Assembly: GCA_002494975.1 (NCBI GenBank) | Contig: DADI01000038.1 | Location: forward strand, 1-18,735 | Reading direction: 5' to 3' | Source of the DNA: Euryarchaeota archaeon UBA556 | GTDB taxonomy: Archaea; Thermoplasmatota; Poseidoniia; Poseidoniales; Thalassarchaeaceae | DNA length: 18,735 nt | Shown here: positions 4,491 through 18,735 of the stretch, piece after piece | Layout: each line of letters starts with the position of its first letter | Position numbering within the stretch: position 1 is the first letter of the stretch | Position numbers and translations under genes: made by a program | The notes under the pieces: generated by a model | Seen by the model: the letters and a program-made list of their open reading frames with translations, nothing else | Database searches by the model: none | What the model was told of the DNA's origin: nothing

Positions 4491-5624
4491 TTAAACTTTT
4501 TCCAAGGCAATGGCTATTCCCATACCGCCACCAATACACATGGTTGCTACTGCGCGCTTTGAATCAGTTGATTTGAGTAAACTAGCCGCTTTGCCTGTGA
4601 TTCTAGCACCAGATGCACCTAATGGATGCCCTATAGCCAATGCACCACCATGTAAGTTTACCTTCTTGTAATCAATACCAAGGTCCTCTATAACCGCTAA
4701 ACTTTGACTTGAGAACGCTTCATTTAGTTCAAATAAATCAACATCTTCGATATCCCAATTTGCTCTTTCTAGAACTTTTCGAGTAGCTTCTATTGGGCCG
4801 ATACCCATAACATCTGGCGAACAACCAGTTACTGAACCTGCAACAATTCTGGCGATAGGTGTGAGATTATTGGTAGCAGCGAATTCTTCACTACAAACTA
4901 TCATGAATACAGCCCCATCAGTTAGAGGGGAGGAAGTTGCGGCAGTAACTATACCATCATCTCCAAACGCAGGATTCAGTCGAGCCATCGATTCCAGAGT
5001 AGTATTGCCACGGATACATCCATCTTGGCTAATGTCGCCATCATCTGTTTGAATACTTACAATTTCATCTGAAAATAAACCATTAGACTGAGCAATTGCT
5101 GCTTTTTGATGTGATGAAAGTGCAAACTCTTCATGTTCAATACGTGTTTGTTGCCATTCTCTAGCAACATTCTCTGCGGTAATCCCCATACCCATGTAAG
5201 CATCAGGAAATTTAACTTCTAATTCAGGAGATGGACTCCAGTTGAAACCACGTCTTTGGACGCGGCTCATAGACTCAACACCACCTACTAAGATACATTC
5301 ACCCCAACCAACTTCTATGTGTGCTGCAGCAGAAAGAATTGCCTGCATAGATGAACCACAAAGTCTGTTTATTGTGGCCCCAGGGACAGTGTTTGGCAAG
5401 TCGCCAAGAAATGTCAACAATCTCCCCATATTGTAACCTTGCTCCCCTTCAGGATATGCACAACCTAGAATTAAGTCATCTATCATTGAACCTGAAATAT
5501 CATTTCTTTTCATTAACTCCCTAATCACTTGACCTGCTAACTCATCAGGCCTAATATTTGCTAATTTACCCTTATGAGCTCTATGAAATGGAGACCTAAG
5601 CCAATCAACAATTACTGCTTTCAT
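4491..5624 (-). CDS. Acetyl-CoA acyltransferase (thiolase)
   Basis: Thiolase, which cleaves 3-ketoacyl-CoA with CoA or, in reverse, condenses acyl-CoAs. 377 residues, slightly shorter than the usual 390-400. The three catalytic elements are present: the nucleophilic Cys89 in INRLCGSS, His333 in IGHPLGASGAR, and Cys363 in MCIGGGMG. LFELNEAFSSQS also matches. The active-site context and GGVESMSR are those of degradative (FadA/FadI-like) thiolases rather than the archaeal HMG-pathway thiolase, which usually sits with HMG-CoA synthase and an OB-fold (DUF35) protein, neither of which is nearby. A role in fatty acid beta-oxidation is therefore favoured, although acetoacetyl-CoA supply to the mevalonate pathway cannot be excluded. 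The start is the ATG at 5624. It is divergent from kptA. Confidence 0.9.
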   Translation of the reverse strand: MKAVIVDWLRSPFHRAHKGKLANIRPDELAGQVIRELMKRNDISGSMIDDLILGCAYPEGEQGYNMGRLLTFLGDLPNTVPGATINRLCGSSMQAILSAAAHIEVGWGECILVGGVESMSRVQRRGFNWSPSPELEVKFPDAYMGMGITAENVAREWQQTRIEHEEFALSSHQKAAIAQSNGLFSDEIVSIQTDDGDISQDGCIRGNTTLESMARLNPAFGDDGIVTAATSSPLTDGAVFMIVCSEEFAATNNLTPIARIVAGSVTGCSPDVMGIGPIEATRKVLERANWDIEDVDLFELNEAFSSQSLAVIEDLGIDYKKVNLHGGALAIGHPLGASGARITGKAASLLKSTDSKRAVATMCIGGGMGIAIALEKV

Positions 5625-6828: not shown

Positions 6829-7659
6829 ATGCCAAAGACGATTCGAAGTATATGGGGTTCAACTTTGGCTAATAATAAAATCGTGATTAAATTTGGCGGA
6901 GGGTTAATCACAGATAAAACTCAATTGAAAACAATCAAGGCACAAAATCTAGATTCTGTGTGTGAAATCATAGCGAATGTTTTGGGAAAAGGAAACGAAG
7001 TGATAATCGTCCACGGGGCCGGATCTTTCGGTCATTTAGAAGCGAAAAAATGGAAATTAGCCGCAGGATATGATGAAAATATCATAAAAGAGCAACGAAT
7101 TGCAGTTGAAAAGGTAAGACGTGACATGCTAGAACTAAACAAAATAGTCCTAGATAATTTGAAGAAATTTGGAATAAATAGCATATCTCATCCGCCTTCA
7201 CTCTGGGCTAACGGTCTGGGACCAGAATTTAATGGAGATATTAATCGATTTAAGGAAAATAATAGTAATACTATTCACGTGACATTTGGAGATGTAGTTG
7301 ACATTAATGATAAAAGAGAATTTGGAATATTATCAGGGGATGATTTAATGGTTAGGATTTGTAATGAAATTCCTGAAATTAGCCATTGTATATTCCTTTT
7401 AGGAGATACTGAGGGGTTACTGACTAAGCCTCCAAATCAAGAAGGAGCAGAACTTATTCCAATTTGGTCTAAAGGCCAAAAAATAATAGGAGTTCATGAA
7501 AAATCACAAGATGTAACCGGAGGGATTTTCTTGAAGGCTGAGAGTGCCAGCATTATTTGTCAAAAAATACCAAACGTTTGGATGCTTGATGGAAGAAAAC
7601 CAGAGAGAATCGAAGAACTTATTCAAACGGGTAATACTACAGGAACTAAAGTTATTTAA
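6829..7659 (+). CDS. ipk: Isopentenyl phosphate kinase
   Basis: Phosphorylates isopentenyl phosphate to isopentenyl diphosphate with ATP, the kinase step of the modified archaeal mevalonate pathway. An amino-acid-kinase fold protein of 276 residues (usual about 250-265). The Lys-Gly-rich N-terminal motif IKFGGGLIT (about residues 20-28) and IVHGAGSFGH (about 60-69) are diagnostic; the final His69 corresponds to the catalytic histidine that separates this family from other kinases of the fold. GILSGDD, LLGDTEGLL, VTGGIFLKAESA and a C-terminal GTKVI also fit. The frame is open far upstream, but the ATG at 6829 is the first plausible start; an AT-rich TATA-like stretch (6808-6816) precedes it. 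It is directly followed by the fused isomerase-synthase gene, which uses its product. Confidence 0.9.
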   Translation: MPKTIRSIWGSTLANNKIVIKFGGGLITDKTQLKTIKAQNLDSVCEIIANVLGKGNEVIIVHGAGSFGHLEAKKWKLAAGYDENIIKEQRIAVEKVRRDMLELNKIVLDNLKKFGINSISHPPSLWANGLGPEFNGDINRFKENNSNTIHVTFGDVVDINDKREFGILSGDDLMVRICNEIPEISHCIFLLGDTEGLLTKPPNQEGAELIPIWSKGQKIIGVHEKSQDVTGGIFLKAESASIICQKIPNVWMLDGRKPERIEELIQTGNTTGTKVI

Positions 7660-7702
7660 TGAAGCATCTATTATATGTAACCACCTCGGAGATATGAGAA
7701 AT

Positions 7703-9397
7703 ATGGTAAGAGAGATTCCAGATAGTAGTCTGAACAGGCTAGATTCATCACAACTAGAGATGATGGAAGAAATGTGCTTAGTTGTAGATGCAAATGATAA
7801 CATCATTAATTCCGCTAGTAAAATCGATTGCCACAGAGGTATTGGAATAAGACACCGAGCATTCAGTGTACTGATTTTTGATTCAGAAAATAGGCTCCTT
7901 ATGCAACAAAGAGCAGAAGAAAAAATAACATTCCCTGGAATTTGGGCTAATAGTTGCTGCAGTCATCCATTAGATATTGAATTTGAAAATAATGATGCAA
8001 AAGAAGGTGTGATTCATGCTGCGAAAAGGAAAATGTTCCAAGAACTGGGAATTCCTATGGAAGTTTCAGAATCATGGGATTACAGCCATATTGGAAGATT
8101 CGAATACAGCTGCAGATGGGATGATGAATGGATAGAACATGAAATTGATCATGTGTTAATAGTCAGAGCAAATGTTGATTTATCAATAAATAAAAATGAG
8201 ATTAAAGAAACAAGGTGGCTCGATCATAATGGAATTAACCAGATGTTAGAAGGTAAAAATGAATGGTCTGATATGGTAGTAGCGCCATGGTTCAGGATGA
8301 TATGGAAGCACTTCATAAAACCGCATTACCCCAATATGAATGACTTAATGAATACGAATAATGAAGAAATCATTAATTGTGGAAGATTATCTTTAACTAA
8401 AGATTCTTCAAATGGAAGAGAATTAAAAAAGGCCCTAGGAGAACATAAAGAAATAGTAGAGAAAGAAATTATGAATTCTATGGAAAAAATAAGCCAAAAA
8501 AGATTGCATGGCGCAATGACACATCTATTCGCAGGAGGTGGAAAGAGGTACAGAGCGATTCTCCCAAGACTGGTTGGAGAAGCAACAGGAATAGCCCATA
8601 ATGGACACTACACACTTGGATCTAGTATAGAAATAATTCATAATTTTACATTAGTGCATGATGACATTATGGATCAGGACCCAATAAGAAGAGGGTTAAA
8701 TGCAGTACACATAGAGTATGATGATGCGACCGCTATAAATGCTGGAGATGCCATGTTAGCAGTCGGTTTTGAAATTCTAGCTGATTCAAATGAAATTAGT
8801 CCGGAAAATTTGAAGTTCTTAGTTCAGTCAATTGGTGAAATGGTCAGAAGAGTGGCAGAAGGTCAACAAGAAGATTTTGACTTTGAGACAAGAGATAATG
8901 TTAGTGAAGAAGAATATATTGCTATGATTGGAGGTAAAACTAGCGCCATGTTTGAAACATGTGCTGAAACGGGTGCAAAACTCGCAGGCGCAGATTCTAA
9001 AACAGTAGAAAATATGGCTGATTGGGGACTTAAGTTGGGATTATGTTTCCAACTTATGGATGATTTAATTGACATCACAGGAGATACTGAAACTCTGGGT
9101 AAACCTGCAGGCTCAGATGTAGTACAAGGAAAGAAGACCTTGATTGCTATACATGCCTTACATAGTAATAATGAATTACCTGCATTTAAGAAAGTTTACG
9201 GGAAAGGTGAATGTTCTGATAATGATTTAGAATCTGCAGTTAACGAATTAAGAAAAAATGGATCAATTGACTACGCAATGGATAGAGCAATGAGATACCA
9301 TTCTGAAGCACACCAAATATTGGATAGCCTAAAACCATCACCTGCATTAGAAGTTTTGAGACAACTAACAGATATGCAATTAACACGAATTAATTAA
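7703..9397 (+). CDS. Fused type 1 IPP isomerase - prenyl (geranylgeranyl) diphosphate synthase
   Basis: One uninterrupted frame of 564 codons joins two enzymes. Residues about 10-205 are a Nudix-type (type 1) isopentenyl diphosphate isomerase: HRAFSV, KITFPGIWANSCCSHPL with catalytic Cys86, and HEIDH with Glu147; it converts IPP to DMAPP. After a hydrophilic linker (about 210-240), residues about 240-564 are a trans-prenyltransferase: GGGKRYR, the first Asp-rich motif HDDIMDQDP (Asp320, 321, 324), GKTSAMF, and the second, FQLMDDLIDITGD (Asp453, 454, 457). Phe315, five residues before the first motif, predicts a short-chain (C15-C20) product, so GGPP for archaeal membrane lipids is likely. GGAG at 7688-7691 favours ATG 7703 over ATG 7694. 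The gene starts 43 bases after ipk, so this is a likely operon of consecutive pathway steps. Confidence 0.92.
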   Translation: MVREIPDSSLNRLDSSQLEMMEEMCLVVDANDNIINSASKIDCHRGIGIRHRAFSVLIFDSENRLLMQQRAEEKITFPGIWANSCCSHPLDIEFENNDAKEGVIHAAKRKMFQELGIPMEVSESWDYSHIGRFEYSCRWDDEWIEHEIDHVLIVRANVDLSINKNEIKETRWLDHNGINQMLEGKNEWSDMVVAPWFRMIWKHFIKPHYPNMNDLMNTNNEEIINCGRLSLTKDSSNGRELKKALGEHKEIVEKEIMNSMEKISQKRLHGAMTHLFAGGGKRYRAILPRLVGEATGIAHNGHYTLGSSIEIIHNFTLVHDDIMDQDPIRRGLNAVHIEYDDATAINAGDAMLAVGFEILADSNEISPENLKFLVQSIGEMVRRVAEGQQEDFDFETRDNVSEEEYIAMIGGKTSAMFETCAETGAKLAGADSKTVENMADWGLKLGLCFQLMDDLIDITGDTETLGKPAGSDVVQGKKTLIAIHALHSNNELPAFKKVYGKGECSDNDLESAVNELRKNGSIDYAMDRAMRYHSEAHQILDSLKPSPALEVLRQLTDMQLTRIN

Positions 9398-9992
9398 TAC
9401 ATTTGGCATTTAGCCTACTCACGATATTCCCATCTGAGTTTTTCATCCAAGCATTGACCTGATCTCCTACAAACATTCTCCCAACTCCTTTGGGTGTCCC
9501 TGTCCAAATATAATCTCCTGATGAAAGGCCATACCATTCATTGAGATGGAATAAAAGAGATTCTACTCCATGAACCATAAGGTCAGTCTTAGCCAACTGT
9601 CTGATTTCACCGTTTACTGACAGACAAATTTCTAAAACCCCAGAATCCCAATCGGTCCAAGTGCCCAAAACTGCTGAGCCTCTGAATGATTTTCCTTCAG
9701 TCCATGGCCACCCCTTTTCCTTAGCAAGCCCTTGCCTAGTCCGATTAGTGGAGTCACAACCTATGCACATTGATTCAGGTAACAAATCATCACCTAATTT
9801 TATGACCAATTCAACCTCATGATCAATATGCTCATTATCATCCATTAGTTTTATCCAATTATTCCCTACCTCATCTGAATAGGAGTGAGATGAATGAGGC
9901 ATTATGAAAAATCGTGGATAATCAGTAACATCACCCCCTATTTCTTCTGCGTGTTCTACATAGTTTCGAAAGCATGCCCAACCAATAGCCAT
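9390..9992 (-). CDS. Fumarylacetoacetate hydrolase (FAH) family enzyme
   Basis: 200 residues, slightly shorter than FAHD1-type proteins (about 220). Visible family marks are the metal-binding acidic pair in DHEVELVIKLGDD (Glu59, Glu61), a further Asp in the CIGCDSTNRTRQ segment (Asp80), GWPWTEGKSF, and the C-terminal WTGTPKGVGRM with a following GDQV. The family hydrolyses or decarboxylates beta-diketo or oxo acids such as acylpyruvates and oxaloacetate, or hydrates/isomerises catechol-pathway intermediates, using a divalent metal in the cytoplasm. The substrate cannot be told here. The start is the ATG at 9992. Its last eight bases overlap the 3' end of the convergent prenyl synthase gene, and its 5' side is divergent from dnaJ. 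Confidence 0.85.
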   Translation of the reverse strand: MAIGWACFRNYVEHAEEIGGDVTDYPRFFIMPHSSHSYSDEVGNNWIKLMDDNEHIDHEVELVIKLGDDLLPESMCIGCDSTNRTRQGLAKEKGWPWTEGKSFRGSAVLGTWTDWDSGVLEICLSVNGEIRQLAKTDLMVHGVESLLFHLNEWYGLSSGDYIWTGTPKGVGRMFVGDQVNAWMKNSDGNIVSRLNAKCIN

Positions 9993-10084
9993 ATTGTGGC
10001 TAAAGCGAGATAGGTCTTGATAGCATCGATACAGAGATTAAGAATTCAATAGGGTTGAAGTTAGGTGACCTGTTAGTAGTTGTA

Positions 10085-11056
10085 ATGTCAGATAACCCGT
10101 ATGTTGTTTTGGGTGTCCCTAAAGATGCGACAAATGCTGAAATTAAGCGGGTTTACAGGAAATTAGCAAGACAGTATCACCCAGATAGAAATCCAGGAGA
10201 TGCGGCTGCTGAGGAGAAATTTAAATCCATACAAGCAGCTTATGATTCAATCGGAACGGTAGAAGGAAGAAAAGAATACGATAATCAGGGACGTGCCCAA
10301 GATATGTTCCGAGGAGGAAACCCATTCTCCAATTTTGGCACAGGGGGGGGGTTTCCAGGAGGAGTAGACATTGGCGATATCTTTTCACAATTCATGGGTG
10401 GAAGAAACCAACAACAAAGAAATGAGTTTGAAGCTTCAAGAGCAAGAAAAGAGCCAAATAGATCTGCGGAAACCGAAAATGGTAGCGATATTGAATCAGG
10501 ATTAGATATTACTTTAGATGATGCTAAAAATGGTACAGATGTAAAATTCACTCATAGAAGATTAAAAAAATGTAAGAAATGTGATGGTAGAGCCTTTGGA
10601 ACCACAAAAGGTTGTTCGGAATGTAAAGGCTTAGGAGTAAGCACTAGAGAGTCAGTAATTACTGTAAAAGTACCCCCTGGCGCTATTCATGGTCAACAAC
10701 TTAGACTTAACAAAATGGGTAATGAACATCCTCACGGTAAACCGGGTGATTTGATAATAAACATAAGACTCGATGCTGAAGATGGAAGAAGATGGGAAAA
10801 TGGTAGACTTATACAGGAAGTACCAATAAACTACACAACACTATTGTTGGGCGGAAATGTACAAATCAAAACACCAAGTAATAAGAGAATACAAATCGAA
10901 ATTCCTGCAAGAAGTAAAATTGGCGACAGAAGAAGATTGAATGGACAGGGACATGATGGAGGGCCTTTAGATATTGAATTCACCATCATCGAACCTGACA
11001 AGCTGAATAAAAAACAAATTATTGCTTTAGAAAAATTGAAAGAATTAGGGTTATGA
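10085..11056 (+). CDS. dnaJ: DnaJ-type co-chaperone with a shortened zinc domain
   Basis: 323 residues, against about 375-390 for standard DnaJ. The J domain (about 1-68) carries HPD at 32-34, which activates DnaK ATPase. A Gly/Phe-rich region (about 75-105) and a charged linker follow. The cysteine-rich domain has only two C-x2-C-x-G units (Cys163/166 and 177/180), so it can bind one zinc rather than the usual two. The C-terminal substrate-binding beta domains are present (VKVPPGAIHGQQLRL, GKPGDLIINI, and the second barrel from about residue 240). The start ATG 10085 is chosen because the J domain begins there (MSDNPYVVLG); an upstream TTG or ATG extension to 10055 is unlikely. No dnaK or grpE is nearby, so this may be a second, specialised DnaJ. 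Confidence 0.88.
   Translation: MSDNPYVVLGVPKDATNAEIKRVYRKLARQYHPDRNPGDAAAEEKFKSIQAAYDSIGTVEGRKEYDNQGRAQDMFRGGNPFSNFGTGGGFPGGVDIGDIFSQFMGGRNQQQRNEFEASRARKEPNRSAETENGSDIESGLDITLDDAKNGTDVKFTHRRLKKCKKCDGRAFGTTKGCSECKGLGVSTRESVITVKVPPGAIHGQQLRLNKMGNEHPHGKPGDLIINIRLDAEDGRRWENGRLIQEVPINYTTLLLGGNVQIKTPSNKRIQIEIPARSKIGDRRRLNGQGHDGGPLDIEFTIIEPDKLNKKQIIALEKLKELGL
10343..10351 (+). repeat. Nine-G homopolymer inside dnaJ
   Basis: A run of nine G encodes three glycines in the Gly/Phe region. In this sequence it keeps the frame open. In an AT-rich genome such a run stands out and is prone to slippage or to sequencing error. Confidence 0.9.
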
Positions 11057-11057
11057 C

Positions 11058-11067
11058 GTTGTACAAC
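11058..11067. repeat. Perfect 10-bp palindrome after dnaJ
   Basis: GTTGTACAAC, fully self-complementary, starting one base after the dnaJ stop. It could be an operator half of the 43-bp spacer or simply chance. Confidence 0.5.
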
Positions 11068-11075
11068 CAGTGATA

Positions 11076-11094
11076 TATGGGAAATAGTCCCATA
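11076..11094. repeat. Inverted repeat just upstream of the RND gene
   Basis: TATGGGA, five-base spacer AATAG, TCCCATA: a perfect 7-bp inverted repeat ending five bases before the ATG at 11100. It could be an operator or an mRNA hairpin at the translation start. No clear Shine-Dalgarno sequence lies between it and the start. Confidence 0.55.
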
Positions 11095-11099
11095 CTATT

Positions 11100-14000
11100 A
11101 TGAGGGACTTCAAAAAAGTAGCTGGAGTGCTAATTCCTCAGAGAAAAAATGTTCATCTCGCTGTATTAATTATTTCCTTACTTATGTTACCCGGATTTGC
11201 AGCAACTCTAACTCCAATAGATGTTGAATCATATAATCTAGAATCTCCAGAACTAGAAGCAGCAGAGGTCATGCGAGAAGAATTTTCAGGAGCAGGAAAT
11301 ATTTGGGGATTCGGATTATTTATCAGAGATTCACAATATTTCGGAGAATCACCATCTCAAATAAGCCAAGTAGATAGTTTTACTGGAATAAATTCTGGTC
11401 AAAGTGAACCATTAGGAGGTATACTGAATCTTTCTGTTCTCAGAGAAATCGATATGAAGGCCGAATTCCTAGAACAGCATGAAATTTCAGAATATTATCT
11501 CTCATTTGCATCTGAGATATCTGGTCAACCAATTCTCGGAGTTCTAGACCTAGCAACTGAATTTAGAGTATTTATGTCTGGACAGTCACTCCTAACAAAG
11601 CCACAATTTAATCCAGACACATTTAGAATGGAAGAAGCACCAACTAATTGGAACGACTGTGGAGCCTTAGAATGCTTATCATTTGATGATCCCAATATAA
11701 CTCAAGAACATATAGATTTGGCATCCCATAGAATGGCAAATAATAGCAAAGGAGCTTTTCTGAGGTTCCTTTCTATAGATAGAGCTTTTATTCAAGATAA
11801 TAGTAGTACGCTAATTGGTCCTATTGGAGGTGTTTTAGATGAAAATGGAAGCATTGAAACAGACTCTTGGGGCTATGGGAGATGGTCTGCATCTTCTGCT
11901 TGGTTAATATTAAACCTCGACAGAGAAAGAATGCAAAATGAAGGGTGGACATTTACTTGGATTAATGCAAGTGCAGAATGGGGATATGACAGAGATGGAG
12001 TAGAATTATCTACAAACCCAATAAGATATTCTATTGATGAATGTAGAGAAAAAGAAGAAAGAGTTGAACCCTTGTGCTCAGTAGAGTGGTTATATCTATC
12101 TATTGAAGAGGATTTGCGAGAACAAGATGAGTTGGTAGTCACTATACTTCTTGGTGAAGGACCAAATGTAGAAATAAACAGGGAACTTCTCTCCAGTGCT
12201 TATCTTATTGTGCTAATGTCTATAGTTGTCATTGCCTTGTTATGGTTGAGTTTGAGAAGAGTTTCAGATGTGTTGATAGTAGGAATAGGACTATTTCTTT
12301 CCCTACTTTGGATGCAAGGACTGATAGGATGGGGTATTAAGTTTGGTCAGTCATATGGTTTTGAAATAATATTTAGATCGCAATTCTCAAATCTACTTCC
12401 TATCTTAATTTTAGCACTAGGAATAGATGACAGCCTGCATGCACTTCATCGTTATAAAGAAGAAAGAAAGAAAGGAAAAACTATTAAAAAGTCGGCTGAA
12501 GAATCTATTTCTCGCGTTGGTAGAGCAATTTTACTGACTTCATCAACAACTATAGTTGCATTCCTTGCAAATCTCACTTCAGATATTGCTGCATTGAGAT
12601 CATTTGGAATTGAAGCAGGTTTGGGTGTTGCTGCAGCATTTTTGCTAACTGGCCTTTGGGTACCTTTGGTAAGATTAGATGTGGATTTGTGGCTCCTAAA
12701 GAAAGATAAATTAATAGAAGAAAAAGAAGGTCAACTGCATCTAATTCCTAAAGATTGGCTAGTAAATATAACTTCGAACTCTACAAAAAAAGGAATTACA
12801 GTAGGTATAGTTGCTATCTTGATAACTTTAGCTGCAACACCTCTTATGTTATCATTAGAAGGGGATTTTCAGATTGATGATTTCTTAGATGATGAATCTG
12901 ATTTCGCTCAAGGAGTTTATCTAGTAAATGAAAGATTCACAGATGGAGAACCAGGGTACATACTTGTTGAAGGAGATATTGCAAATCCAAAAGTCATTGA
13001 GGCCATTGGTTTGACAAGAGAGAATATGAATTCGCATAATCGAAGCATAGACCCAGATCAGATTTCTAGAACACCTTCAGGAGAAGTTGAATTGATTGCA
13101 TTAGATGAGATATTGATGTTTGTACAGGCAGCAATGTATGAGAATATCACACCTTTTGAAGAGGCGGGTTGGGATTCCAGCAAAGATGACGGAGGTTTAG
13201 AATGCCAAACAATGAGTCTAATTTATCCAGGAGTAGGGATAAGAAATATACCCACTTTAGAAGATAGAGATTGTTTAGTATTTCTATATGGATTCATTTT
13301 AACAAGAGGAGTTCCAGCAAGTGGAGGTTATCCGGCTCTACCTCCATCTATTACTTCAGAATACATCCAATCTGAATTAGATTTAGATTATGATCAGCCA
13401 TGGCTTGACACTTCTGGAAATACACCTAAATATGTCAGAATGACTATGAGATTTGGTCTATCAAATGCTGAACAGTTTGCTAAGGTAGGACCCGCATTAG
13501 AACAATTAGTTGATGACTTATCTCCATTCCAAAACTTATCAAAAACAAATCTTGTAGAACGAGGAGAAATTGAAACGGCATTTAGTTCAGAAGAGTATCC
13601 GATCACATGGACTATACCAACCGGCGATCCAGTTATTAGATTCGTAGCCGCTGATTCTATGCAAAACGAAATGCAATCAACACTTTTGCTAGGCATAGTA
13701 TTCTGTACAATTACATTATGGGGCGGTTTTAGAGACGAAGAGACCCTCAGCCAGAGAACTAAATACATCAAAAAGAATAAAATCAGATATTCAATGAAAA
13801 CTATAGCAGCAATGACGTTTATGGGTGGAATAATGTACTTCCTCGTAAGTATAGAGGCAGCTATAGCCTTCTCATTATTGACACTAGTATTGAGTATATT
13901 ATGGGGAATTTCTGGGTTTGGAATTGCTGTTATGACTACAACGCCAATATTTTTGGTAATAATTTGGCTTTATGGAATGATAGAAATTGCAGGCTATGGT

Positions 14001-14333
14001 TTGAATATGGTAACAGTTGCAATAGCAGCGATGTCTCTCGGTGTAGGAATTGATTATGTGATTCACGTTGTAGAGAGATTCCGAGAAGAACAAGAAAATG
14101 GCCATGATACTATAACAGCAATCGAAATAGTAGGAGGTGCATCAGGACTAGCTCTATTTGGTTCAGCATTATCTGACATAGGAGGATTCCTAGTCATTAC
14201 TCAATCAAGTATGGGATTCTTCTCTACATTTGGACTATTTTGCGCAATAATGATCGGATTATCATTACTAGCAAGTATAATCCTAACGCCTGCTTTAATA
14301 GGAATTATTCATAGAAATAAAATTTCAGTTTAA
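11100..14333 (+). CDS. RND/MMPL-superfamily membrane transporter
   Basis: 1077 residues with the two-fold RND plan: one helix (about 19-37), a large outside loop (about 40-362), six helices (about 364-585), a second large loop (about 588-870), and a final group of helices to the end. The fourth helix of each half ends in the charged motif of the family, GIDDSLHALHRY (441-452) and GIDYVIHVVERF (983-994), the acidic residues expected for ion-coupled movement. Paired cysteines in loop 1 (187/192, 314/326) could form disulfides. Archaeal members, like MMPL and HpnN proteins, are thought to export lipids or other hydrophobic molecules; the substrate here is unknown. It lies 43 bases after dnaJ on the same strand and converges on EF-2. 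The start is the ATG at 11100. Confidence 0.85.
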   Translation: MRDFKKVAGVLIPQRKNVHLAVLIISLLMLPGFAATLTPIDVESYNLESPELEAAEVMREEFSGAGNIWGFGLFIRDSQYFGESPSQISQVDSFTGINSGQSEPLGGILNLSVLREIDMKAEFLEQHEISEYYLSFASEISGQPILGVLDLATEFRVFMSGQSLLTKPQFNPDTFRMEEAPTNWNDCGALECLSFDDPNITQEHIDLASHRMANNSKGAFLRFLSIDRAFIQDNSSTLIGPIGGVLDENGSIETDSWGYGRWSASSAWLILNLDRERMQNEGWTFTWINASAEWGYDRDGVELSTNPIRYSIDECREKEERVEPLCSVEWLYLSIEEDLREQDELVVTILLGEGPNVEINRELLSSAYLIVLMSIVVIALLWLSLRRVSDVLIVGIGLFLSLLWMQGLIGWGIKFGQSYGFEIIFRSQFSNLLPILILALGIDDSLHALHRYKEERKKGKTIKKSAEESISRVGRAILLTSSTTIVAFLANLTSDIAALRSFGIEAGLGVAAAFLLTGLWVPLVRLDVDLWLLKKDKLIEEKEGQLHLIPKDWLVNITSNSTKKGITVGIVAILITLAATPLMLSLEGDFQIDDFLDDESDFAQGVYLVNERFTDGEPGYILVEGDIANPKVIEAIGLTRENMNSHNRSIDPDQISRTPSGEVELIALDEILMFVQAAMYENITPFEEAGWDSSKDDGGLECQTMSLIYPGVGIRNIPTLEDRDCLVFLYGFILTRGVPASGGYPALPPSITSEYIQSELDLDYDQPWLDTSGNTPKYVRMTMRFGLSNAEQFAKVGPALEQLVDDLSPFQNLSKTNLVERGEIETAFSSEEYPITWTIPTGDPVIRFVAADSMQNEMQSTLLLGIVFCTITLWGGFRDEETLSQRTKYIKKNKIRYSMKTIAAMTFMGGIMYFLVSIEAAIAFSLLTLVLSILWGISGFGIAVMTTTPIFLVIIWLYGMIEIAGYGLNMVTVAIAAMSLGVGIDYVIHVVERFREEQENGHDTITAIEIVGGASGLALFGSALSDIGGFLVITQSSMGFFSTFGLFCAIMIGLSLLASIILTPALIGIIHRNKISV

Positions 14334-14348
14334 CCTAAAATGTTAATT

Positions 14349-16556
14349 TTAATCTTGGTAGTTTGCTTCACCAGGTATTTCTTCCTTCAAGCCCTTTCGT
14401 TGCCTGATTTCAGCTGTAACTTTATGGAAAAGTGCGTGTGGTAACTGAACGAAACCTGCATTTTCAGTATTCCAAACCGCTCTACCTTGGCTTGCAGCTC
14501 TAATATCATTTGAGAAACCAAAAGACTCTGCAACTGGCATTTTACCAATTACACTTGCAGTACCGCCATCGACTGGCATATCTTCGATTATTCCACGACG
14601 TGTTGTTAACTCACGTGTCACTCCGCCAATTACATCGTTAGGAGCATCGATACGAATATTCTGCATCGGTTCATAAATTACGGATCTAGCCCTTAGAACT
14701 GCTCCCTTGACTGCATTACGCACAGCAGGTATAGTTTGAGCAGGACCACGGTGAATCGCATCTTCGTGGAGCTTAGCGTCAACGAGACGAACTAATACAC
14801 CCATTAGAGGTTCTTCAGCAGTAGGTCCTTTCTTACATACATCATTGAAACCTTCAATCATAAGTTCTCTAGTTTCGTGAAGATTTTGAATACCTTTGGT
14901 ATCATTAACGAAAACATTAGTGCCGTGAATAGCATAGATTTTTCTCATTAAATCTTTGTCCATACCGAACTCAGCGAATTTATTACCTGTTTCTTTAGCA
15001 TCTTTTGTTCTAACAGGTCCATCTCCGAAATGACCCTCTCTTAGAGCATTGATGACATCTAGAGGTAATGGTTCACATTCAATATAGAATCTGTTGTGTC
15101 TATTAGGTGATTTACCTTCAAATGGGCGACCACTATTATTGCTTTCAATGGATTCTCGGTAAACAACAATTGGCTCACTGACCTTAACTTTGATATTCTG
15201 CTCTTCTTGCATGCGGAAAATTGTAATCTCAAGATGCAATTCACCCATACCTGCTAATAGAGCCTCTCCGGTTTCTTGGTTAGTTGTAACTTGCAAAGAA
15301 GCATCTGCTTTAGCAAGACCACGTAGAGCATCAATGAATTTTGGTAGGTCCTTCATTGATTTAGGTTCAACAGCAACAGTAACAACTGGTTCAGAGTAAT
15401 GCCTGATTGCTTCGAATGGAGTAGCTTCTGGATCTCTAGAAATCGTAACTCCAGCCGCTGCACTTCGCACACCGGTCAAAGCAGCAATATTACCTGCAGA
15501 TACTTCTGGGACTTGGATCCTATCTCCGCCGACCATCATACTAACTTGTTGAACTCTCTCCGATTTAGCAGCGCCAATAGCCCAAACAGTCTCGCCATGT
15601 TTTATTGAACCTGAGTAAACTCTTCCTACTGCAACTTCTCCTGCATGAGGGTCCATCCATATCTTTGTAATCATTAATTGAAGAGGCCCATCTGGATTAG
15701 TGTCAAGCATTGACTTACCAACTTCTGATTCTAAGTCACCTTGCCAGATATTAGGGATACGGTATTTCTGAGAAATTAGCGGAGATGGTAGTTTTTCGAC
15801 AGCCATGTCAAGTAAAACTCGATGCACTGGTGCTTTCTTAGACAATTCTTTTTGTTCATCATTATGGCAATGTTCAAAGATATCTTTAAAATTTAATCCT
15901 GATTTTTCCATGTACGGAATAGACATCCCCCAGTTGTAATAAGCTGAACCAAAAGCAACAGTTCCTTTTCCAACAGATACTTGCCACTCTTTAGCGAGTT
16001 CTGCAGGAGCGAAAGTCTCAATTAATTTGTTGACTTTTGTAATAATTTTTTCGAATCTCTTCATCATTTCGGGGCCATCAATCTGTAATTCATTGATTAA
16101 CCTGTCAACTTTATTGATGAATAATACTGGGCGCACTTTTTCTTTCAATGCTTGACGAACAACAGTCTCAGTTTGTGGCATAGTACCTTCAACCGCACAT
16201 GCAAGGATAATACATCCATCAACTGCCCTCATAGCTCGAGTAACGTCACCACCAAAATCAACGTGACCAGGAGTATCGATGAGATTGATAAGATAATCAT
16301 CACCATCTATGTCGTGAACCATTGAAGCGCTTGCTGCATTAATTGTAATTCCACGTGCACTTTCTTGTTGATCAAAATCAAGAACCCTTGACTTCCCTGC
16401 TAAATCTTCAGACATCATTCCAGCGCCAGCAATTAGATTATCTGACAAAGTTGTTTTCCCATGGTCAATGTGTGCTGCGATTGCAAGATTTCTGATTTTC
16501 TCTCTGACGTGCATAACTTCTGTTGCTCGCTTTATGTTGTCTTCTTTACGACCCAT
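14349..16556 (-). CDS. fusA: Translation elongation factor 2 (aEF-2)
   Basis: GTPase that moves tRNA and mRNA through the ribosome after peptide transfer. 735 residues, the usual archaeal length. The G domain shows G1 AHIDHGKT (28-35), the switch region ARGITINAAS, G3 DTPGHVDF and G4 NKVD. Domains II-V follow. His602 in LHEDAIHRGPAQ is the residue converted to diphthamide in archaea and eukaryotes and is absent as such in bacterial EF-G, which makes this an archaeal factor. The start ATG 16556 follows an AAGGTG ribosome-binding site five bases away. It is third in the uS12-uS7-EF-2 order, but a 107-base spacer with its own promoter-like sequence separates it from uS7. EF-1A and uS10, often next in this cluster, are absent; a convergent RND gene follows. 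Confidence 0.97.
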   Translation of the reverse strand: MGRKEDNIKRATEVMHVREKIRNLAIAAHIDHGKTTLSDNLIAGAGMMSEDLAGKSRVLDFDQQESARGITINAASASMVHDIDGDDYLINLIDTPGHVDFGGDVTRAMRAVDGCIILACAVEGTMPQTETVVRQALKEKVRPVLFINKVDRLINELQIDGPEMMKRFEKIITKVNKLIETFAPAELAKEWQVSVGKGTVAFGSAYYNWGMSIPYMEKSGLNFKDIFEHCHNDEQKELSKKAPVHRVLLDMAVEKLPSPLISQKYRIPNIWQGDLESEVGKSMLDTNPDGPLQLMITKIWMDPHAGEVAVGRVYSGSIKHGETVWAIGAAKSERVQQVSMMVGGDRIQVPEVSAGNIAALTGVRSAAAGVTISRDPEATPFEAIRHYSEPVVTVAVEPKSMKDLPKFIDALRGLAKADASLQVTTNQETGEALLAGMGELHLEITIFRMQEEQNIKVKVSEPIVVYRESIESNNSGRPFEGKSPNRHNRFYIECEPLPLDVINALREGHFGDGPVRTKDAKETGNKFAEFGMDKDLMRKIYAIHGTNVFVNDTKGIQNLHETRELMIEGFNDVCKKGPTAEEPLMGVLVRLVDAKLHEDAIHRGPAQTIPAVRNAVKGAVLRARSVIYEPMQNIRIDAPNDVIGGVTRELTTRRGIIEDMPVDGGTASVIGKMPVAESFGFSNDIRAASQGRAVWNTENAGFVQLPHALFHKVTAEIRQRKGLKEEIPGEANYQD

Positions 16557-17771: not shown

Positions 17772-17860
17772 CATGACGGGGAGGCAGTAGGTAGAAGTTT
17801 GACACTAATACTCAATTTCTATCGCTAACATTGAAATCGAAACGGCATTGGGTTGTTAAT

Positions 17861-18735
17861 ATGGCGTTCCGAGATTTACTTGTTGATGTAGAAAAAATAG
17901 ACACTGAAACCAGCGTAATACATGGAATAATGAATGGTTCGAAAGAAAAAAACCATAGACCCTTAGTCTTCTCTAATTTGAAAGAAGCACCTAATCATTC
18001 AGCCGCACTTAATGTATTGACTAGGAAAAGAATATGTGAAACATTTAATGTTAGTCCGGGAGAACTTATTGACATTTTAGCTTGGGCCATGAATAATCCT
18101 TGTGAGCCAGAGATTATTGATTCAGGTTCTGCTCCAGTAATGGAGAATACAATGGAAAAAGTAAATCTAGAAAAAATACCAATACCTTGGCACTACCCTG
18201 AAGATAGGGGAAGATATCAATCAGCATCCGTGATTATAGCCCAATATAATGGAATAAGAAATATGTCTTTCCATAGGCAATTCTTGAGAGATGGAAATCA
18301 TACTGTTTCAAGATTTGTCCCCAGACATCTCAGAACTATGACAGATCTTGCGACTAGCGACGGTAAGAATGTAGATATCGCAGTTGTAAATGGCGCTGAC
18401 GCTGTCGTTTTGTTAGCAGCAGCAATGTCATTCACAGTAAATCTAGATGAATTGACTGTTGCAGCAGCACTCCACCAGAAATTACATGGGAAACCACTAA
18501 AGCTAGTGGAACTTTCTAATGGCATTCAAGTCCCTGCTAATGCAGAATACGCCATGGAAGCTGAAATTACTCTAGAAAGAGATGATGAAGGGCCGTATGT
18601 CGACATAACTGGGACTGTTGATGACGTTAGACAAGAAAATGTCATACGATATAATGCCATACACCACAGGGATAATCCGGTTTTCCATGCACTCATTCCA
18701 GGAGAAGTAGAACATAGAACACTAATGGGTATGCC
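17861..18735 (+). CDS. UbiD-family decarboxylase (5' part, cut by window end)
   Basis: The frame is open from ATG 17861 to the window edge (291 codons); the family is about 420-490 residues, so roughly a third is missing. UbiD enzymes use prenylated FMN for reversible decarboxylation of unsaturated or aromatic acids. Family marks are MSFHRQFLRDG (135-145) with FVPRHL (152-157), the DIAVVNGADAVVLLAAA segment (172-188), AEYAMEAEITLERDDEGPYVDITGT (228-252, with the conserved acidic residues), and NAIHHRDNPVFHALIPGEVEHRTLMGMP. Archaea carry several paralogs, one of which is anhydromevalonate phosphate decarboxylase (AMPD) of the modified mevalonate pathway; ipk and the prenyl synthase nearby make that an attractive but unproven assignment. 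It is divergent from rps12 across about 138 bases. Confidence 0.85.
   Translation, partial: MAFRDLLVDVEKIDTETSVIHGIMNGSKEKNHRPLVFSNLKEAPNHSAALNVLTRKRICETFNVSPGELIDILAWAMNNPCEPEIIDSGSAPVMENTMEKVNLEKIPIPWHYPEDRGRYQSASVIIAQYNGIRNMSFHRQFLRDGNHTVSRFVPRHLRTMTDLATSDGKNVDIAVVNGADAVVLLAAAMSFTVNLDELTVAAALHQKLHGKPLKLVELSNGIQVPANAEYAMEAEITLERDDEGPYVDITGTVDDVRQENVIRYNAIHHRDNPVFHALIPGEVEHRTLMGM

What the first reader, a model, noticed from the sequence alone, without database searches (positions are those of the whole stretch)
6829..9397. IPP isomerase fused to prenyl diphosphate synthase, directly after isopentenyl phosphate kinase
A single frame without a stop encodes a complete type 1 Idi (Cys86, Glu147) and a complete short-chain prenyltransferase (both Asp-rich motifs). 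Three successive reactions (IP to IPP, IPP to DMAPP, chain elongation) are thus encoded by two adjacent genes. A fusion would fix the ratio of DMAPP supply to elongation and could pass the intermediate between domains. I do not know this fusion as a standard archaeal arrangement. Most archaea use the unrelated flavin-dependent type 2 isomerase, and the Idi part here reads close to eukaryotic IDI1, which hints at lateral transfer.
Basis: partly seen in the sequence, partly recalled or inferred. Interest (0 to 1): 0.75.

Follow-up and report, generated by a model that had tools for sequence, protein, structure and literature searches.

The report
IPP isomerase–prenyl synthase fusion, marine archaea
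In the ocean's common Marine Group II archaea, the enzyme that makes the starter unit of isoprenoid chains (a eukaryote-like form) is fused into one protein with the enzyme that builds the chain, a conserved arrangement that I did not find described.

Summary
One gene (ATG 7694 to stop 9397, 567 aa) encodes a type 1 IPP isomerase (Idi1) and a class I prenyl diphosphate synthase, 34 bases after an isopentenyl phosphate kinase gene. Of 145 sampled genomes of the class, 102 have both domains in one uninterrupted frame; selection is purifying throughout. The fusion belongs to Marine Group II. Marine Group III relatives have the two genes separate but overlapping, in different frames. Type 2 isomerase passes its cut-off in 0 of 37 Poseidoniia and 101 of 108 other Thermoplasmatota. 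In other archaea it follows the kinase (19 of 20 distinct loci read) and precedes the synthase in 11 of those 20, the place Idi1 holds here. The Idi1 is eukaryote-like and groups with fungal IDI1 (97/98); transfer direction is unresolved. Most likely a bifunctional enzyme turns IPP alone into GGPP. The C20 product rests mainly on one residue; channelling is untested. Ten literature searches and passages of eight papers showed no mention of the fusion.

The parts
6829..7659 (+). isopentenyl phosphate kinase (IPK), makes IPP from isopentenyl phosphate
   Evidence: NF040647 159.9 bits over cut-off 120; AA_kinase; IPK in the same place in 74 of 76 distinct fused loci with at least 850 bases upstream
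7694..9397 (+). idi1-GGPPS fusion gene, 567 aa plus stop
   Evidence: single open frame; closest homologues start at the same Met; dN/dS far below 1 in all parts against L001
7694..8389 (+). type 1 IPP isomerase domain, residues 1-232, with a C-terminal extension; its last strand (226-232) seems to match the IHxMGE end of the unfused MGIII protein
   Evidence: TIGR02150; nearest fold human IDI1, TM 0.89 by target length; strand 226-232 in the model; MGIII C-terminus, match judged by eye
8390..8422 (+). linker, residues 233-243, least conserved part
   Evidence: mean share of the commonest residue 0.39 against 0.72 (Idi core) and 0.80 (GGPPS) over 36 sequences; pLDDT under 50 at 237-240
8423..9394 (+). 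class I (all-trans) prenyl diphosphate synthase domain, residues 244-567, probably GGPP synthase
   Evidence: PF00348 216.6 bits; best NCBIfam matches IdsA_Meth and GGPP_syn, both under their cut-offs; archaeal GGPPS structures 5jfq and 1wy0
7958..7960 (+). catalytic Cys89 of the Idi domain
   Evidence: aligns with the E. coli Cys of the C-x-H motif, invariant in 36 of 36; role recalled
8135..8143 (+). Glu148-x-Glu150, metal and catalytic Glu of the Idi domain
   Evidence: alignment, invariant; roles recalled
8660..8674 (+). first Asp-rich motif DDIMD (323-327); Phe318 stands five residues before it
   Evidence: rule on the fifth residue from PMC4244643 passages
9059..9073 (+). second Asp-rich motif DDLID (456-460)

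Best explanation
This is a bifunctional enzyme of Marine Group II archaea. The N-terminal type 1 isomerase makes DMAPP from IPP. The C-terminal synthase uses that DMAPP as primer and adds further IPP to give, most likely, geranylgeranyl diphosphate for membrane lipids. IPP alone, delivered by the IPK encoded just upstream, is then the only input. Shown here: the fusion, intact catalytic residues, conservation, purifying selection, the upstream IPK, and no type 2 isomerase over cut-off in 37 sampled Poseidoniia. Inferred: both activities, the C20 product, and the benefit, which I take to be a fixed 1:1 supply of primer-maker and chain-builder with DMAPP made next to its user. Also inferred is the history: a eukaryote-like Idi1 took the place of type 2 Idi beside IPK and the synthase, the new gene pair became overlapping (as still in MGIII), and a frame change fused it in MGII.
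For: Both domains by Pfam and NCBIfam, by sequence of solved structures and by fold; catalytic residues invariant in 36 of 36 aligned, D460 in at least 90%; 102 of 145 class genomes fused without a stop; dN 0.08/0.18/0.05 against dS 1.25/1.67/1.36 for Idi/extension plus linker/synthase versus L001; IPK upstream on the same strand in 74 of 76; AcnX, the marker of the archaeal MVA route that ends in isopentenyl phosphate, in 57 of 60 and diphosphomevalonate decarboxylase over cut-off in 0 of 60; type 2 Idi over cut-off in 0 of 37 Poseidoniia against 101 of 108 other phylum members; 19 of 19 fetched split loci have the two genes overlapping or touching, in different frames; IPK followed by type 2 Idi in 19 of 20 distinct other archaeal loci, the synthase behind in 11; Phe five residues before the first Asp-rich motif as in the Sulfolobus C20 enzyme (PMC4244643 passages).
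Against: No activity has been measured. The synthase domain misses the cut-offs of all product-level models (IdsA_Meth 258 of 468, GGPP_syn 247 of 500). A second, separate prenyl synthase is in each of the six MGII genomes (two sequences read), so chain roles could be divided otherwise, and it too needs DMAPP, which argues against a closed channel. Two MGII-like genomes (G110, G146) keep two separate genes. A few MGII genomes have a second, weaker Idi-like NUDIX match under the cut-off (G016, G018, G026 at 57-65 bits), so a further isomerase is not fully excluded. In 9 of the 20 other archaeal loci no synthase was found behind type 2 Idi in the stretch read, so the replaced 'slot' is certain only for the IPK side.
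Confidence: 0.8

Rival explanations
1. The two enzymes are fused only so that they are made in equal amounts; each works as it would alone and DMAPP diffuses freely. The fusion is translational coupling of an overlapping gene pair made permanent. (This is a rival on the benefit only; it shares the bifunctional reading.)
For: The unfused relatives have overlapping or touching genes, which can couple translation; the linker is short and poorly conserved; the second prenyl synthase needs free DMAPP.
Against: None direct. The wide retention of the fusion (102 of 145 class genomes) suggests some benefit but does not tell which.
Confidence: 0.5
2. The synthase domain makes a product other than C20 (C15 or C25), and GGPP comes from the second prenyl synthase.
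For: All product-length models fall below their cut-offs; a second synthase is present.
Against: Phe318 at the fifth place before the first Asp-rich motif fits C20 (rule); the two second synthases read have Ala there (sequences), which fits longer chains; the fusion lies beside IPK like the archaeal IdsA of 11 loci.
Confidence: 0.2
3. The Idi domain is a dead or regulatory remnant.
For: Nothing found.
Against: Invariant catalytic and metal residues, dN/dS about 0.06 against L001, and no type 2 Idi over cut-off in 37 Poseidoniia.
Confidence: 0.03
4. Assembly or frameshift artefact that joins two genes.
For: Split genes do exist in relatives.
Against: 102 of 145 genomes, including G010 on a contig that reaches at least 2.0 Mb, and many unrelated assemblies.
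Confidence: 0.005

Closest known systems
Eukaryotic type 1 IPP isomerase (IDI1; human 2icj/2dho/2i6k)
   Same: Best solved match of the N-terminal domain: 174 bits, fold TM 0.89 by target length, 38% identity; alignment to human IDI1 reaches further at both ends than that to E. coli Idi
   Different: The human and fungal enzymes seen stand alone; here it is archaeal and fused to a synthase
Archaeal GGPP synthase / IdsA (5jfq Geoglobus, 1wy0 Pyrococcus)
   Same: 201 and 177 bits, both Asp-rich motifs, a similar fold
   Different: Those are single-domain; the domain here is under the NCBIfam equivalog cut-offs
Archaeal gene row IPK - type 2 Idi - (in some another gene) - IdsA
   Same: IPK neighbour on the same side; synthase on the other side in 11 of 20 distinct loci
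   Different: Unrelated isomerase (type 1, eukaryote-like) in place of type 2, and fused to the synthase
Marine Group III idi1-GGPPS gene pair
   Same: Same two genes, same order, overlapping or touching (17 of 17 read)
   Different: Two reading frames, not fused; no IPK found in the flanks held, 1-3 kb upstream
Type 1 Idi of haloarchaea and of a few other Thermoplasmatota
   Same: Same NUDIX isomerase family; three Thermoplasmatota (G181, G183, G228) pass TIGR02150 and lack type 2 Idi
   Different: Bacterial-like branch, 27-34% identity, not fused to a synthase in the loci read

Membership tests
Type 1 IPP isomerase (TIGR02150) | Score over the curated cut-off | tested here: met
   143.2 bits, cut-off 105.8
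Type 1 IPP isomerase (TIGR02150) | Catalytic Cys and Glu, metal-binding His/Glu | tested here: met
   C89, E150, H47, H54, H91, E148 align with the E. coli enzyme (roles recalled) and are invariant in 36 of 36
Type 1 IPP isomerase (TIGR02150) | IPP to DMAPP activity | not testable with these tools
   needs purified protein
Class I trans prenyl diphosphate synthase (PF00348) | Family score and both Asp-rich motifs | tested here: met
   216.6 bits, cut-off 27; DDIMD and DDLID
GGPP synthase, equivalog level (NF041003, NF040698) | Score over the curated cut-off | tested here: not met
   246.6 of 500 and 258.2 of 468; so the C20 product is inferred, not assigned by membership
GGPP synthase, equivalog level (NF041003, NF040698) | Phe at the fifth place before the first Asp-rich motif, as in the Sulfolobus C20 enzyme | tested here: met
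   Phe318; rule from PMC4244643 passages
Isopentenyl phosphate kinase (NF040647), upstream gene | Score over the curated cut-off | tested here: met
   159.9 bits, cut-off 120
Type 2 IPP isomerase (TIGR02151) | Family match (FMN-dependent TIM-barrel type) | tested here: not met
   no such match in the fusion; none over cut-off in 37 of 37 Poseidoniia

The most novel reading that the evidence does not exclude
The fused enzyme is a dedicated IPP-to-GGPP machine with local DMAPP transfer, and its isomerase half shares a private ancestor with eukaryotic IDI1, so that eukaryotes and planktonic Poseidoniia exchanged this gene, possibly from the archaea to early eukaryotes. In the Idi trees the sampled eukaryotes (fungi only, fungi and one rodent record) fall beside a Marine Group III branch (99/94), but one-clade Poseidoniia is not rejected (p-AU 0.15).
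Probability: 0.1. Interest if true: 0.8.

Novelty: new variant of a known kind. Interest (0 to 1): 0.5.

Why it matters
Marine Group II are called the most abundant planktonic archaea of ocean surface waters and have no cultured member (PMC6461757, abstract in the listing). The nature of their membrane lipids is an open question: papers report GGGP and DGGGP synthase genes but no glycerol-1-phosphate dehydrogenase (PMC6962369 passages). A fusion that ties isomerase output to chain elongation shows how they start isoprenoid synthesis and gives one protein to assay for chain length. It also suggests replacement of an archaeal enzyme by an unrelated eukaryote-like one beside the same neighbour, followed by fusion, with an unfused state still alive in MGIII. 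Current databases name the protein after one half only: isopentenyl-diphosphate delta-isomerase at NCBI, geranylgeranyl diphosphate synthase at JGI.

Tried and rejected
Fusion of type 2 Idi with GGPPS in other Thermoplasmatota: long open frames (615-650 aa, 657 aa) suggested it, but Pfam finds only the synthase in the 657-aa frame, and in every locus where both genes were seen they lie in different open frames (12 of 21 loci); rejected for these. In the other nine the synthase was not seen.

Fission versus separate origin in G110 and G146: the concatenated tree (49 of the 96 usable rows) leaves them unplaced, with the fused rows as one clade in 20% of bootstraps. The EF-2 tree puts them inside MGII (95/93), which speaks for a split after fusion or a second fusion, but holding the fused genomes together is not rejected (p-AU 0.27). 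Left open. GGPPS tree (38 chosen rows): MGII and MGIII do not come out together; holding them together is not rejected (p-AU 0.384); no conclusion.

Search for donors of the Idi: best 103 bits in the phylum of G007 apart from its own MGII-like contig (145 genomes), 79 in the phylum of G257 (148), 87 in the phylum of G260 (151), against 174 for human IDI1. I call these Verrucomicrobiota, Halobacteriota and Thermoproteota from the record titles of the centre genomes. Other bacteria, Asgard archaea, plants and protists were not reached, so the donor is unknown. The protein search with an MGIII Idi found 3834 proteins; of the 120 listed, those with an organism name are one Ca. Poseidoniales and one Marine Group III; no donor. 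Whether the fusion exists outside Poseidoniia was looked at only through open-frame lengths and the best 120 of 1960 hits.
Full report
What is there. The window reads as Marine Group II (Ca. Poseidoniales) DNA: the closest named relatives of the fusion are L007 (uncultured Ca. Poseidoniales AG-319-P11, 94% over residues 1-473, cut by its contig end) and L001 (Ca. Thalassarchaeum, 88% over the whole). The frame 7544-9397 on the + strand is open; the closest relatives start at the Met encoded at 7694, giving 567 residues. Pfam and NCBIfam find a type 1 IPP isomerase (TIGR02150, 143.2 bits, cut-off 105.8) followed by a polyprenyl synthetase (PF00348, 216.6 bits, cut-off 27) in this one frame. The gene before it, 6829-7659, passes the isopentenyl phosphate kinase model; 34 bases lie between.

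Are both halves intact? In an alignment of 36 MGII proteins the residues that align with the E. coli isomerase's metal and catalytic residues (alignment; the roles are recalled) are invariant: H47, H54, C89, H91, E148, E150. So are the first Asp-rich motif's three Asp and the first two Asp of the second; D460 is kept in at least 90%. The mean share of the commonest residue is 0.72 in the Idi core, 0.80 in the synthase and 0.39 in the 11-residue linker. Against L001, dN/dS is about 0.06, 0.1 and 0.04 in Idi, C-terminal extension plus linker, and synthase; against three more distant loci dS was mostly saturated. The AlphaFold2 model has mean pLDDT 85.7 and pTM 0.85, with low confidence at 1-15, 237-240, 328-332 and 465-469. 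Its best PDB matches are human IDI1 (TM 0.89 by target length) and archaeal GGPP synthases (0.91-0.94); to judge by alignment length none of the 50 listed rows spans both domains.

How widespread is it? In 145 genomes of the class, 102 have one match over both domains in an uninterrupted frame. Twelve more have partial or separate matches: G110 and G146 are split; G130 has a stop; seven (G051, G058, G068, G081, G119, G134, G140) look cut by contig ends; G107 and G127 are unexplained. The remaining 31 have no fused match: 19 have MGIII-like separate genes, and 12 show only weak best matches (E from about 1e-18 to 1e-42), which I did not explain; missing contigs are likely, and G053 does hold a cut Idi piece next to an IPK. 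G010 carries the fusion on a contig that reaches at least 2.0 Mb. A search of 5.8 billion proteins gave 1960 fusion-length hits with the Idi part; the 120 listed all carry both Pfam domains. One contig filed under a Pedosphaera assembly (L050/G007) holds the fusion too; it looks like a foreign contig.

The unfused state. In 17 fetched loci from small genomes of the class (L140-L156; 0.8-1.4 Mb) and in G110 and G146 (L157, L158) the two genes are separate, on the same strand, overlapping or touching by a few bases, with the synthase in another frame (19 of 19; starts read by eye). That the small genomes are Marine Group III rests on P0329, named Marine Group III euryarchaeote CG-Epi4, which is 75% identical to the Idi of L145; another listed relative, P0296, is named only Ca. 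Poseidoniales archaeon. The fusion therefore needed a frame change, not only loss of a stop. No IPK was found next to the MGIII pairs within the flanks held (about 1-3 kb upstream). In 74 of 76 distinct fused loci with at least 850 bases upstream, IPK precedes on the same strand within 500 bases; the exceptions are L010, where none was found, and L159, where it is farther off and in two frames. G110 and G146 have IPK directly before the split pair.

Replacement of type 2 isomerase. In the 145-genome phylum sample, type 2 Idi passes its cut-off in 101 genomes, none of them among the 37 Poseidoniia, which reach at most about 32 bits against a cut-off of 281. Type 1 Idi passes in 38: 35 of the 37 Poseidoniia and 3 of the 108 others (G181, G183, G228), and those three lack type 2. 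Passing for neither are G032 and G049 (Poseidoniia), G207 and G208, and G156 and G175 with broken or partial type 2 matches. Some genomes have further matches to the type 1 model under its cut-off, among them the MGII genomes G016, G018 and G026 (57-65 bits). I read 21 other archaeal loci, of which L055 and L198 are the same place, so 20 are distinct; seven (L052-L070) had been found by their synthase and the rest were picked mainly for long type 2 Idi frames. IPK comes before type 2 Idi in 19 of 20 (not seen in L196). The synthase follows in 11 of 20, in L052, L056 and L069 with room for another gene between; in nine it was not seen in the stretch read. So Idi1 stands where other archaea have type 2 Idi beside IPK, and in part of them also beside the synthase.

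Pathway. AcnX, given as exclusive to the archaea-type MVA route (PMC11052028, section 3.1 read), is present in 57 of 60 sampled Poseidoniia, while the diphosphomevalonate decarboxylase model passes in 0 of 60 (three weak matches). So isopentenyl phosphate must pass through IPK to IPP (established knowledge of that route, recalled), and the fusion's Idi domain is the only IPP isomerase over cut-off of the two known types in the Poseidoniia sampled. The synthase domain has Phe at the fifth place before its first Asp-rich motif, like the Sulfolobus C20 enzyme (PMC4244643 passages). It misses the cut-offs of product-level models, so C20 is a likely guess. The second prenyl synthase (31-32% identical in the two read) has Ala at that place, which points to longer chains; it too would need DMAPP.

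Origin of the Idi. The Idi domain scores 174 bits against human IDI1 and about 48 against E. coli Idi, at most 103 in the Verrucomicrobiota sample apart from the G007 contig, 79 in Halobacteriota and 87 in Thermoproteota. In a tree of 44 rows Poseidoniia and fungal IDI1 form one group (97/98) apart from bacterial-like type 1 Idi, with the fungi next to one MGIII branch (99/94); Poseidoniia alone as one clade is not rejected (p-AU 0.15). In the larger tree of 57 rows MGII and MGIII do not form clades either. The alignments have 217 and 227 columns, eukaryotes are fungi plus one rodent record, and 13 rows were left out. A lateral transfer between eukaryotes and this archaeal lineage is therefore likely, its direction unresolved.

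How it most likely works. IPP from IPK enters the fusion; the Idi domain turns part into DMAPP; the synthase adds IPP to it, probably three times, to GGPP. One C20 chain needs one DMAPP and three IPP, and a 1:1 fusion ties starter supply to chain building. Whether DMAPP passes directly is untested. The unfused genes in MGIII and in G110 and G146 show that fusion is not needed for the chemistry, which makes co-expression a serious rival to channelling.

Literature. Ten searches ran (one search was not run); the first found no paper. I saw passages of PMC11052028 (plus section 3.1), PMC3533463, PMC4244643, PMC6962369, PMC6336850, PMC6864105, PMC8473941 and PMC7852524, and a term look-up without hits in PMC6461757. 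No passage mentions an Idi-prenyl synthase fusion; the words fusion or fused were looked up in all of these but PMC6962369, and their one hit (PMC4244643) concerns vesicles. PMC3533463 mentions IDI1 in Haloarchaea and Thaumarchaeota as likely bacterial transfers; the term marine group does not occur there. Most subscription papers, preprints and supplements were not searched, so 'undescribed' is limited to this.

Verdict. Real, conserved, typical of a whole archaeal group, and apparently unremarked: a new combination of known enzyme families, not a new kind of enzyme.

Noticed in passing
window 17831-18733 (+): UbiD-family decarboxylase, cut by the window's end (TIGR00148, 177 bits, cut-off 245); UbiD-type enzymes serve as anhydromevalonate phosphate decarboxylase in the archaeal MVA route (recalled), so it may belong to the same pathway.
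   Followed up: no
window 4491-5624 (-): Acetyl-CoA C-acyltransferase (thiolase, TIGR01930 over cut-off) near the isoprenoid genes; could serve the first MVA step or fatty acid breakdown.
   Followed up: no
L050 (Pedosphaera sp. isolate ARS72), G007:C2: A contig with the MGII fusion lies in an assembly named Pedosphaera; probably a foreign contig.
   Followed up: partly
L199 (G165:C81): IPK and type 2 Idi lie in the same 561-aa open frame, with the Idi matching only from model position 61: a possible IPK-Idi2 fusion or a sequence error.
   Followed up: no
L160 (G228), L161 (G183), L162 (G181): Three Thermoplasmatota outside Poseidoniia have a bacterial-like type 1 Idi and no type 2 Idi: an independent replacement.
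   Followed up: partly
L157, L158 (G110, G146): MGII-like genomes with separate IPK, idi1 and GGPPS genes; their Idi and synthase sit on a long branch although their EF-2 is ordinary MGII.
   Followed up: partly
window 9390-16556: In 19 of the 21 MGII genomes the EF-2 match lies 30-506 bases from the fusion or synthase match and faces it (1.6 kb in G060, 5.0 kb in G001). In the window about 5 kb lie between, with an FAA-hydrolase-like gene, a DnaJ-like gene and an RND-like transporter.
   Followed up: no
L159 (G130:C31): Fusion frame with an internal TAA and an IPK in two frames; probably sequence errors of this assembly.
   Followed up: no
L168 (G016:C14), G018:C18, G026:C34: A second, weaker Idi-like NUDIX match (57-65 bits, under the TIGR02150 cut-off) in some MGII genomes; function unknown.
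   Followed up: no
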